Program-made: the position numbers and the translations under genes | The notes under the pieces: model-generated | Databases searched by the model: none | What the model saw: the letters and a program-made list of their open reading frames with translations, nothing else | What the model was told of the DNA's origin: nothing | DNA from: Actinomycetota bacterium | Lineage (GTDB): Bacteria; Actinomycetota; Acidimicrobiia; Acidimicrobiales; RAAP-2 | NCBI GenBank assembly: GCA_029850535.1 | Contig: JARCRU010000030.1 | Span: 25,658-89,657, forward strand | Direction: 5' to 3' | Length of the DNA stretch: 64,000 nt | Shown: positions 31,646-34,676 of the stretch, in pieces | Numbering within the stretch: position 1 is the stretch's first letter | How the letters are laid out: each line of letters starts with the position of its first letter

Positions 31646-31670
31646 CCACGGGTCAAATTGTGACCCGTGG
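31646..31670. promoter_or_regulatory. Perfect inverted repeat, operator candidate in infA / PPOX-module divergent region
   Basis: CCACGGGTCA-AATTG-TGACCCGTGG, 10-bp perfect arms. Confidence 0.65.
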
Positions 31671-31709
31671 CCCTAGTTGTTTTCTCGCGACGCGGACCAT
31701 GCTAGACGG

Positions 31710-32093
31710 ATGGAGGACTTACCTGCCGTGTCAGTGCTGGACCGTGACGACTGCGTCGACCGGCTATCGGCGGCACCGCTCGCACGGATACTGGTGTCGG
31801 TACGATGTCTGCCCACTGCCCTGCCGGCCAGGATTCGCGTCGTGAACAGGAATAAGATCCTCATCGCCTCCTCGGACACCTCGATCTTGCTCGCCGCCCA
31901 GCGCCACGACGTCCTCACCGTGCAAGTCGACGGCGTCGATGAGCACAATCACACCTGGTCAGTGGTGGCGTCGGGCATCGCCGAGGTCTCCTCGGACACT
32001 GGCCCGATGGACGACGTGCTCGGGGACGCCTCGAGTTACGGGGGCCAGCTGGTCTCATTCCCGATGTCGGTCGTCGTCGGCCAACGACACTGA
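31710..32093 (+). CDS. PPOX-class (pyridoxamine 5'-phosphate oxidase-like split-barrel flavin) protein
   Basis: Within ORF 31677..32093 (alternative starts 31677 TTG, 31728 GTG after GGAGG); VSVLDRDDCVDRLSAAPLARILVS ... LPARIRVVNRNKILIAS. Confidence 0.7.
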   Translation: MEDLPAVSVLDRDDCVDRLSAAPLARILVSVRCLPTALPARIRVVNRNKILIASSDTSILLAAQRHDVLTVQVDGVDEHNHTWSVVASGIAEVSSDTGPMDDVLGDASSYGGQLVSFPMSVVVGQRH

Positions 32094-32121: not shown

Positions 32122-33273
32122 GTGAAGTTCCGTGAACTGCGTGATCCCGACCGACTGCACGCGCTGATCGACGCCATGTTGCTCATGGAGACCGACGCGG
32201 CGCTGGGTACGCTGCTGCAACAGATCGTCGACACCGCCAGCGAGTTGGTCGGGGCCCACTTCGGAGCTCTCGGGGTGCTGGCCCGTGACGGAGCGACCAT
32301 CTCGGAGTTGTACACCTGCGGCATCGACGAGGAGGAGAGGATGCGCATCGGCCAGCCCCCCAGCGGCCAAGGAGTGTTGGGCCAGACCATCAGGGGGGCC
32401 CAGCCCCTGCGCATCGACGACCTCGCGCACCACCCCGGCTCGTCGGGTTTCCCCGAGAACCATCCCCCCATGCTCCGTTTCCTCGGGGTGCCCGTGATCA
32501 CTCGCAACGGCCACGTCTGGGGCAACCTCTACGTCACCGAGCCACTCAGCGGCGCGCCCTTCAGTCACGACGACGAATTGCTACTCGAGACGTTCGGACG
32601 TGTGGCCGGCGCGGTCATCGACCAGTCCAACTTGCGAAGAGAGTTGCGCGAACTCACGGTGACCGAAGAACGCGAGCGAATGGCGCGCGACCTGCACGAC
32701 ACAGTCATCCAACGACTCTTCGGCGTAGGGCTGGGCCTTCAGATGGTCCTCCCTTTGATCGGTGACGACGCTCGCGCGCGCGTGGACCTGGCATTGGACG
32801 AGCTCAATGAGACCATCCACGACATCCGCACCACCATCTTCGAGATCGACCAGGACCGCGCCACTGACGATACGTTGCGTCAGCGCGCGATGGCCCTCAC
32901 GAGCGAGGTGGACAGCCGACTCGGCGTCGAGGCCCACCTCCAAATGCAGGCGGGGCTCTCACAACAAGTCAACGAGCACTGCGCGCACCACACGATTCAG
33001 GCGCTGCGCGAGATTCTTTCGAACATCGTGCGCCACTCCGAGGCCACCCGCGTCGAAGTGGAGCTCAGTGACGACGGGGATTTCCTAGTGCTCACGGTCC
33101 GCGACAACGGGGTGGGTTTCGACAGCGGGGTGGGCTTCGACAACGGTGCGGGCTTCGGTCGGGGTCTGCGAAACCTCGCGACACGGGCGCACGACCTTGG
33201 TGGCGAGTGCGTCGTTCAGTCGAGCCCCGGAAGTGGCACACTGGTGAAGTGGACCGCACTGAAGAAGGCGTGA
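32122..33273 (+). CDS. GAF-domain sensor histidine kinase (HisKA_3/HATPase), DevS/DosS-like
   Basis: GTG start within ORF 31939..33273; GAF FRELRDPDRLHALIDAMLLMETDAALGTLLQQIVDTASELVGAHFGALGVL; H-box ERERMARDLHDTVIQRLFGVGLGLQ; N-box EILSNIVRHSEATRVEVEL. Confidence 0.9.
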   Translation: MKFRELRDPDRLHALIDAMLLMETDAALGTLLQQIVDTASELVGAHFGALGVLARDGATISELYTCGIDEEERMRIGQPPSGQGVLGQTIRGAQPLRIDDLAHHPGSSGFPENHPPMLRFLGVPVITRNGHVWGNLYVTEPLSGAPFSHDDELLLETFGRVAGAVIDQSNLRRELRELTVTEERERMARDLHDTVIQRLFGVGLGLQMVLPLIGDDARARVDLALDELNETIHDIRTTIFEIDQDRATDDTLRQRAMALTSEVDSRLGVEAHLQMQAGLSQQVNEHCAHHTIQALREILSNIVRHSEATRVEVELSDDGDFLVLTVRDNGVGFDSGVGFDNGAGFGRGLRNLATRAHDLGGECVVQSSPGSGTLVKWTALKKA

Positions 33274-33274
33274 G

Positions 33275-33916
33275 ATGATTCGACTCCTGCTCGTGGACGA
33301 CCACGAGATCGTGCGTCGCGGGCTGCGCGAACTCCTCGAGGCGAACCCCGATCTCACCGTGACGCATCAAGCCGGCAACCTCGAATCGGCGCTCGCGCTC
33401 GACTGCAGCGATGTGGATGTCGCCGTGCTCGACGTGCGACTGCCCGACGGTAGCGGCGTCGACCTGTGTCGGAGTTTGCGCGAGACCTACCCGCACCTCA
33501 ATTGCCTGATGCTCACCTCCTTCGCCGACAACGAGGCCCTCAACGCCTCGGTGCTCGCCGGAGCGCAGGGCTACGTTTTGAAGAACGTCCGCGGCGATGA
33601 ATTGATCAATTCCATCCGACGCGTGGCCCAGGGTGAGATGCTGCTCAGCACCGAACAGATCGAGCGTGCTCGTGAGCGCCTACGACGTCAGATCACCGAA
33701 GATATGCGCCTGGAGTCCCTGAGTGTCCAAGAGCGTCGTATCCTCGAGTTGCTCTCCGAGGGACTCTCCAATCGAGAAATCGGCGAAGTCATGTTCCTCG
33801 CCGAGAAGACGGTCAAGAACTACGTGTCGAACCTGCTCGCCAAGTTGGGCTTCCAACGTCGAACCGAGGCCGCGCTCTTCGCGCAACGCCAGTTCGACCG
33901 CGACCGTCGCGACTAG
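33275..33916 (+). CDS. NarL/LuxR-family response regulator, DevR/DosR-like
   Basis: ORF 213 aa; LLLVDDHEIVRRGLRELLEANP, VAVLDVRLPDGSGVDLC, LSEGLSNREIGEVMFLAEKTVKNYVSNLLAKLGFQRRTEAALFA. Confidence 0.93.
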   Translation: MIRLLLVDDHEIVRRGLRELLEANPDLTVTHQAGNLESALALDCSDVDVAVLDVRLPDGSGVDLCRSLRETYPHLNCLMLTSFADNEALNASVLAGAQGYVLKNVRGDELINSIRRVAQGEMLLSTEQIERARERLRRQITEDMRLESLSVQERRILELLSEGLSNREIGEVMFLAEKTVKNYVSNLLAKLGFQRRTEAALFAQRQFDRDRRD

Positions 33917-34243: not shown

Positions 34244-34546
34244 TCACGAGTAGAACGTCATCGCCCGCCGTTCGGCACTGACACGAAACTCCTCGTAGAC
34301 CGCGCGGTCCTGCAGCATGAAGACGTTCTTACCCGACGCGTTGTGGTGCGCCAGAGCAGTGAGGAAGCGCGCGATCCGGGTACTCCAGGTCTCACGAGCG
34401 TGGACGTCGCCCACGGTCGCAGCAATCTGGGTGGTCGCCGTGGCCCGGGAGGTCATGGCGCGCGGCGCGACGGGGGAGTCAAGGGATTCTTGGACGACGA
34501 AGTCGACGTGCGTAGCGTTGTTTCGTCGGGTATCGACAATGCTCAT
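34244..34546 (-). CDS. Small hypothetical protein (orphan)
   Basis: ATG at 34546 with GAAAGGAAGACC RBS; about 100 aa, MSIVDTRRNNATHVDFVVQESLDSPVAPRAMTSRATATTQIAATVGDVHARETWSTRIARFLTALAHHNASGKNVFMLQDRAVYEEFRVSAERRAMTFYS; no family recognised. Confidence 0.6.
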   Translation of the reverse strand: MSIVDTRRNNATHVDFVVQESLDSPVAPRAMTSRATATTQIAATVGDVHARETWSTRIARFLTALAHHNASGKNVFMLQDRAVYEEFRVSAERRAMTFYS

Positions 34547-34585
34547 GGTGGTCTTCCTTTCAAGAAGTGAGATCCAGGATCCCCC

Positions 34586-34676
34586 CGCTTTTCGAAAAGC
34601 GCCGCCTGAAGCCGAACAGTACTGAATCTCCACTGCCGTCCGCGGGCTTCACGCACGGCAGTAAAGAACGGCTTCA
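34586..34676 (-). promoter_or_regulatory. Nested inverted-repeat 5' leader of the orphan gene
   Basis: Outer TGAAGCCG 34607-34614/CGGCTTCA 34669-34676; inner ACTGCCGT 34632-34639/ACGGCAGT 34655-34662; palindrome CGCTTTTCGAAAAGCG 34586-34601. Confidence 0.5.

What the first reader, a model, noticed from the sequence alone, without database searches (positions are those of the whole stretch)
32122..33273. Single-GAF DevS/DosS-like kinase retains the proposed haem-ligand His and pocket Tyr
The segment NHPPMLRFLGVPVITRNGHVWGNLYVTE closely parallels M. tuberculosis DevS [26 protein letters not shown] (recalled), where the HPPM His is haem ligand H149 and the YLT Tyr is Y171. Here His114 (codon 32461-32463) and Tyr137 (32530-32532) are conserved with one extra residue between them. 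DevS has two GAF domains; this protein appears to have one followed directly by HisKA_3/HATPase. It is a candidate minimal haem-based gas/redox sensor.
Basis: partly seen in the sequence, partly recalled or inferred. Interest (0 to 1): 0.7.

Follow-up and report, generated by a model that had tools for sequence, protein, structure and literature searches.

The report
Single-GAF Dos-type oxygen-sensing kinase
An uncultured Acidimicrobiaceae bacterium carries a shortened relative of the haem-based oxygen sensors DosS/DosT of the tuberculosis bacterium, next to a DosR-like regulator and under a conserved DosR-like DNA site; it looks like a widespread, simpler version of that low-oxygen switch.

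Summary
ORF 32122-33273 is a 383-aa cytoplasmic kinase with one GAF, HisKA_3 and HATPase_c. The GAF's best solved relatives are the haem GAF-A domains of DosT (3.5e-38) and DosS; a structure model matches DosT GAF-A at 1.5 Å. His114 aligns with DosS H149 and Tyr137 with Y171. Both are present in all 118 GAF-A-type domains collected and absent from all 21 second-type (GAF-B) domains; more distant GAF kinases have both or, with one exception, neither. The entry-gate residue is Gly51, as in DosT, not Glu87 as in DosS. A tree puts this GAF with GAF-A (100% SH-aLRT).

It is not an isolated oddity: 380-aa single-GAF relatives occur across Acidimicrobiia. In this genus the gene sits in a conserved trio (FMN-type oxidase, kinase, regulator) between infA and map. 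The regulator's best solved match is DevR/DosR (1e-59), with an identical DNA-recognition helix. A Dos-box-like site, GTGAC-N6-CCCTA, is conserved before the trio in most genus loci and before pyruvate phosphate dikinase; both gene types are in the Streptomyces OsdR regulon.

Best reading: a haem O2/NO/CO sensor working through a DosR-type regulator without GAF-B. Haem binding is inferred. New architectural variant of a known system.

The parts
31660..31675 (+). Dos-box-like element GTGACCCGTGGCCCTA (reverse strand TAGGGCCACGGGTCAC), upstream of the operon
   Evidence: Conserved block in the closest relatives and most genus loci, scores 12-37 against shuffled maxima mostly below 10; one of 5 exact matches to GTGACN6CCCTA in the genome
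31698..31703 (+). CATGCT, candidate -10 element 22 nt after the box
   Evidence: Inference from conserved spacing; same spacing (21 nt) before the PPDK gene
31728..32093 (+). PNPOx/FMN-binding split-barrel protein, first gene of the operon (longest ORF 31677-32093; GTG 31728 after GGAGGA proposed as start)
   Evidence: Pfam PF12900 E 1.7e-9; PDB 6eci 1.9e-4; conserved before the kinase across the genus
32122..33273 (+). Single-GAF histidine kinase, 383 aa
32203..32622 (+). GAF domain, residues 28-167, GAF-A type
   Evidence: Pfam PF13185/PF01590; 2vzw 3.5e-38; Foldseek 2vzw TM 0.91 by target, rmsd 1.5; tree
32272..32274 (+). Gly51, equivalent of DosS Glu87 / DosT Gly85 haem-access gate
   Evidence: Alignment; Gly in 113 of 118 family members
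32461..32463 (+). His114, predicted proximal haem ligand (DosS H149)
32530..32532 (+). Tyr137, predicted distal pocket residue (DosS Y171)
32668..32847 (+). HisKA_3 dimerisation/phosphotransfer domain; His192 (32695-32697) in DLHD is the predicted phosphorylation site
   Evidence: Pfam PF07730; H192 invariant
32995..33252 (+). HATPase_c catalytic domain
   Evidence: Pfam PF02518; DosT kinase domain 3zxq 3.3e-13
33275..33916 (+). NarL/DosR-family response regulator, 213 aa, starts one base after the kinase stop codon; phospho-Asp53; recognition helix AEKTVKNYVS (33800-33829)
   Evidence: DevR 3c3w E 9.8e-60 against 6.7e-35 for the next family, VraR

Best explanation
The protein is a soluble haem-b sensor kinase of the DosS/DosT kind that lacks GAF-B. 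Haem sits in the single GAF, held by His114. O2, NO or CO binds the other face next to Tyr137, through an open DosT-like channel (Gly51). As in DosS/DosT, O2 binding should hold the kinase off, while loss of O2 or binding of NO/CO should switch it on. The signal should pass straight along the helix that runs from the GAF into the HisKA_3 bundle. His192 is phosphorylated and passes the phosphate to Asp53 of the DosR-like regulator. The regulator then binds Dos-box-like sites, activating its own operon and at least the pyruvate phosphate dikinase gene. Shown here: domain content, residue identity, orthology to GAF-A, operon conservation and conserved DNA sites. Inferred: haem, ligand, sign of the response, phosphotransfer and DNA binding.
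For: GAF best matches are DosT/DosS GAF-A by sequence and by structure model (ranks 1-17). His and Tyr are both present in 118 of 118 GAF-A-type domains and both absent in 21 of 21 GAF-B-type. In distant GAF kinases they are again both present or, with one exception, both absent. GAF tree. Continuous model helix 149-212 from GAF to DHp. Regulator closest to DevR, recognition helix identical. Operon PNPOx-kinase-regulator conserved in the genus. Conserved box upstream and before PPDK; both gene types are OsdR targets in Streptomyces (PMC5069765). Ferrochelatase present. DosS H149 and Y171 roles from PMC4082495.
Against: No experimental haem evidence for any single-GAF member was found in the papers held. 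The AlphaFold model has no ligand, pTM is only 0.53, and coordinates could not be inspected for pocket geometry. The second half of the DNA site (GTCAC) departs from the DosR/OsdR half-site (GTCCC/GGCCC). Few further exact sites exist in the genome. In DosS, GAF-B tunes ligand discrimination, so gas specificity may differ here.
Confidence: 0.78

Rival explanations
1. The GAF binds haem, but mainly as a redox or haem-availability sensor (the Fe3+/Fe2+ state or haem occupancy sets kinase activity) rather than a gas sensor.
For: DosS has been argued to be a redox sensor, and reports on its autooxidation conflict (PMC4082495). The pocket residues alone do not settle this.
Against: The gate residue is Gly51, as in DosT, which forms a stable oxy complex; the Glu87 linked to DosS autooxidation is absent. 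Nearly all family members have Gly.
Confidence: 0.15
2. The GAF has kept the fold and the His/Tyr for structural reasons but binds another small ligand or acts as a haem-free dimerisation domain.
For: GAF domains bind many ligands, and HPPM lies in a conserved stretch (GFPxNHPPMxxFLGVP). No haem spectrum exists for these proteins.
Against: Loss of the His goes with loss of the Tyr in GAF-B and in most distant kinases, while the residue after His-Pro varies freely. A Cys-ligated Fe-S cluster is ruled out: only one Cys (C66) lies in the GAF.
Confidence: 0.07
3. The conserved GTGAC-N6-CCCTA element is a site for some other activator or sigma factor, so the link between this regulator and its targets is coincidental.
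For: The second half-site is not a DosR half-site. The element is fused to a promoter at fixed spacing. Enrichment in the genome is weak (5 exact matches, 3 of them intergenic).
Against: The element sits on the regulator's own operon; its first half (AGGGCC/AGGGTC) matches the OsdR consensus AGGGCCGATCGGCCCT; some genus copies are closer to the Dos box, such as GGGACTCCAGTCAC in L022. PPDK and PNPOx genes are OsdR targets in Streptomyces. Single-GAF loci elsewhere in the class are enriched in canonical boxes, 14 against 2.9 in shuffles.
Confidence: 0.25

Closest known systems
DosT (Rv2027c) and DosS/DevS (Rv3132c) of Mycobacterium tuberculosis
   Same: Haem GAF-A domain with proximal His and distal Tyr, HisKA_3 + HATPase_c kinase, cytoplasmic, DosR-type partner; Gly gate and Asn135 as in DosT
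   Different: GAF-B is missing; the gene order is kinase then regulator behind a PNPOx gene, inside the ribosomal-protein cluster; about 43-49% identity in the GAF
OsdK/OsdR (SCO0203/SCO0204) of Streptomyces coelicolor
   Same: DosT/DevR-orthologous pair; regulon includes its own gene, a PNPOx-family gene and pyruvate phosphate dikinase, as predicted here
   Different: OsdK is reported as 41-42% identical to DevS/DosT (PMC5069765); the DNA site there is a full palindrome, here one half is degenerate
PolS/PolR of Microlunatus phosphovorus
   Same: DevS/DevR-like pair proposed to respond to oxygen (PMC6754071)
   Different: PolS has two GAF domains; haem binding is not reported in the passages read
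DevR/DosR (PDB 3c3w)
   Same: Closest solved relative of the regulator; recognition-helix residues corresponding to K179, K182 and N183 identical
   Different: Phospho-Asp is residue 53 instead of 54 because of a one-residue deletion

Membership tests
DosS/DosT-type haem GAF sensor kinase | GAF-A-type sensor domain | tested here: met
   Best PDB matches all GAF-A; groups with GAF-A apart from GAF-B at 100% SH-aLRT
DosS/DosT-type haem GAF sensor kinase | Proximal ligand His (H149 DosS) | tested here: met
   His114 aligned
DosS/DosT-type haem GAF sensor kinase | Distal Tyr (Y171 DosS / Y169 DosT) | tested here: met
   Tyr137 aligned
DosS/DosT-type haem GAF sensor kinase | Two tandem GAF domains (GAF-A + GAF-B) | tested here: not met
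   One GAF; about 15 residues between GAF end and HisKA_3. So it works like a Dos sensor and is GAF-A-orthologous, but is not filed as a canonical DosS/DosT
DosS/DosT-type haem GAF sensor kinase | HisKA_3 + HATPase_c kinase core with intact H, N and G boxes | tested here: met
DosS/DosT-type haem GAF sensor kinase | Binds one haem b and discriminates O2 from NO/CO | not testable with these tools
   Needs purified protein; only ferrochelatase presence was checked
DosR/DevR-type response regulator | Receiver + GerE with DosR recognition helix | tested here: met
   3c3w E 9.8e-60, AEKTVKNYVS identical
DosR/DevR-type response regulator | Binds Dos box GGGAC-N4-GTCCC-like palindromes at target promoters | tested here: inconclusive
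   Conserved related element with one degenerate half-site; binding not testable here

The most novel reading that the evidence does not exclude
A GAF-B-less Dos system is the common form of haem gas sensing in Acidimicrobiia and occurs in other phyla; one haem GAF coupled straight to the kinase is enough for gas-gated signalling, and a core Dos regulon (auto-regulation, PNPOx, pyruvate phosphate dikinase) is shared between Acidimicrobiia and Streptomyces. GAF-B would then be a lineage-specific addition.
Probability: 0.4. Interest if true: 0.62.

Novelty: new variant of a known kind. Interest (0 to 1): 0.5.

Why it matters
How haem ligation in GAF-A is passed to the DosS/DosT kinase, and what GAF-B contributes, is unresolved (PMC4082495). 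A natural family with GAF-A joined directly to the kinase lets that be tested without truncating a two-GAF protein, in small soluble proteins from environmental bacteria. It also extends Dos-type oxygen sensing to uncultured Acidimicrobiia and points to a small conserved regulon. No paper found in the library describes this single-GAF form.

Tried and rejected
Perfect 10-bp inverted repeat at 31646-31670: not conserved in relatives, dropped as the operator in favour of the overlapping conserved element. Canonical GGG[AC]C-N4-G[GT]CCC boxes around genus loci: not enriched (10 against a shuffled mean of 5.3, maximum 11). ODP-family (di-iron, oxygen-binding) gene with a box-like site in this genome (L135): the site is not seen in its orthologues, so not claimed. 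Luciferase-like and other genes near loose motif matches: most matches lie inside coding regions. Fe-S GAF sensor (AirS/NreB-like): rejected, one Cys in the GAF. Absence of the HPPM string in many orthologues looked like loss of the His, but alignment shows HP is kept and only the next residue varies. The primary papers with the full haem-contact lists (PMC2676038, PMC2645934) were not held, so only the H149, Y171, E87 and T169 equivalents were checked.

Full report
What is there. The ORF at 32122-33273 (+) encodes a 383-aa protein starting at GTG. Pfam finds one GAF domain (28-167), HisKA_3 (183-242) and HATPase_c (292-377), with no second sensory domain and only about 15 residues between GAF and HisKA_3. 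NCBIfam gives no hit above its cut-offs.

Is the haem pocket kept? Against all solved structures the GAF matches DosT GAF-A (2vzw, 3.5e-38) and then the DosS GAF-A sequences, all far ahead of any other GAF (about 1e-5). H114 aligns with DosS H149, the experimentally established haem ligand, and Y137 with Y171, which is needed for ligand discrimination (PMC4082495). Position 87 of DosS (Glu, blocking the channel) is Gly51 here, as in DosT (Gly85); position 169 (Thr in DosS, Asn in DosT) is Asn135. At both of these positions, which that review ties to the DosS/DosT difference, the protein is DosT-like. The extra residue between His and Tyr lies in the hairpin loop and is common: 53 of 121 aligned domains have spacing 23.

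Controls on the residues. Relatives were collected in two ways: a peptide-pattern scan of genomes, which used FPENHPPM as one of six seeds and so favours the motif, and unseeded protein searches of 120 family and 198 class genomes. All 118 GAF-A-type domains keep both His and Tyr, including every locus from the unseeded searches; all 21 GAF-B-type domains keep neither. A deliberately more distant set of GAF kinases from the class separates cleanly: every domain scoring above 80 bits has both residues, those below have neither, with one exception that has His but Gly at the Tyr position. The pair therefore travels together, which fits a shared cofactor site rather than general GAF conservation.

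Fold and tree. An AlphaFold2 model from an 18-sequence alignment has mean pLDDT 78 and pTM 0.53; the helix from the end of the GAF runs unbroken into the kinase bundle (149-212). Foldseek against the PDB returns DosT and DosS GAF-A as the first 17 matches, 2vzw with TM 0.91 by target and rmsd 1.5. In a 108-domain tree all GAF-B domains fall on one side of a branch and all single-GAF domains, this one included, on the other with GAF-A (SH-aLRT 100). Inner order is poorly resolved, so the tree does not decide whether one GAF is ancestral.

How common is it? In the class search most full-length matches are about 375-390 aa over the match with a single GAF; 73 of 86 good-quality family genomes and 85 of 141 class genomes have a match at 1e-25, though some weaker matches cover the kinase alone. 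One-GAF relatives also appear in bins labelled Chloroflexi, Acidobacteria and Deltaproteobacteria. Two-GAF forms also occur in the class.

Surroundings. The regulator gene starts one base after the kinase stop codon. Its best solved match is M. tuberculosis DevR/DosR (9.8e-60), well ahead of VraR (6.7e-35), and the recognition helix AEKTVKNYVS, which holds the equivalents of the DNA-contacting K179, K182 and N183, is identical (PMC4082495). Upstream lies a PNPOx-family (FMN split-barrel) gene. This trio sits between infA and map in nearly all genus loci with enough sequence, at 55-80% kinase identity.

A conserved DNA element. Aligned upstream regions of the closest relatives share one strongly conserved block, GTGACC..GGCCCTAG, in otherwise diverged sequence. 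A matrix from nine of them finds the same element before the PNPOx gene in most genus loci, with scores up to 37 where shuffled sequence mostly stays below 10. On the other strand it reads TAGGG(C/T)C-N4-GTCAC. Its first half equals the OsdR half-site (AGGGCCGATCGGCCCT) and its second half is degenerate. The exact form GTGACN6CCCTA occurs five times in this genome (reversed control 0 forward, 3 reverse); the three intergenic copies precede this operon, a pyruvate phosphate dikinase gene and a PAS-GGDEF gene, each with a -10-like sequence about 21-22 nt further on. The PPDK copy is found at the same place in 9 of 15 close orthologues by pattern (0.0045 expected in shuffles; the pattern was chosen after seeing the sites) and in more by eye. 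In S. coelicolor the OsdR regulon includes osdR itself, a PNPOx gene (SCO0214) and PPDK (SCO0208, bound in EMSA) (PMC5069765). Single-GAF loci elsewhere in the class are enriched in canonical boxes (14 against 2.9 shuffled).

Mechanism. From established DosS/DosT work: O2 on the haem holds the kinase off; deoxy, NO and CO forms are active; the kinase phosphorylates DosR. I carry this over by orthology. The step that must differ is transmission, since GAF-B is missing and the sensor helix enters the kinase directly. In DosS, GAF-B sharpens the CO/NO conformers (PMC4082495), so this protein may discriminate gases less sharply. Gly51 predicts DosT-like O2 binding.

Verdict. The finding is real and its interpretation is supported, though haem remains unproven. 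Against the defining features of DosS/DosT it meets all the tested ones except the tandem GAF pair. It is best called a single-GAF variant of the Dos sensor family. A specialist would expect a haem protein here; the surprising part is how widespread and how conserved the GAF-B-less system is, together with its regulatory site.

Noticed in passing
31646-31670: Perfect 10-bp inverted repeat CCACGGGTCAAATTGTGACCCGTGG overlapping the conserved element; not perfect in relatives.
   Followed up: yes
34244-34633 (-): 129-aa ORF in the gap between the regulator and map, conserved at 32-56% in four close relatives, no Pfam family.
   Followed up: partly
L199:1471-4317 (-) (G000:C132): 948-aa multi-PAS GGDEF protein whose promoter carries the same GTGAC-N6-CCCTA element with the same spacing to a -10-like sequence.
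   Followed up: partly
L135:1508-2869 (G000:C102): ODP-family (flavodiiron-like) gene with a box-like site TAGGGCCAAAAGTCGC just upstream; site not conserved in orthologues.
   Followed up: yes
L107:920, 1426, 3405: Three copies of GGGCCGAAGGTCCC around a single-GAF kinase/regulator pair in another family of the class: a clean Dos-box cluster.
   Followed up: no
L191 (G223:C120:2250-3480): GAF kinase that keeps the ligand-type His (GHPP) but has Gly at the Tyr position: possible haem GAF with altered distal pocket.
   Followed up: no
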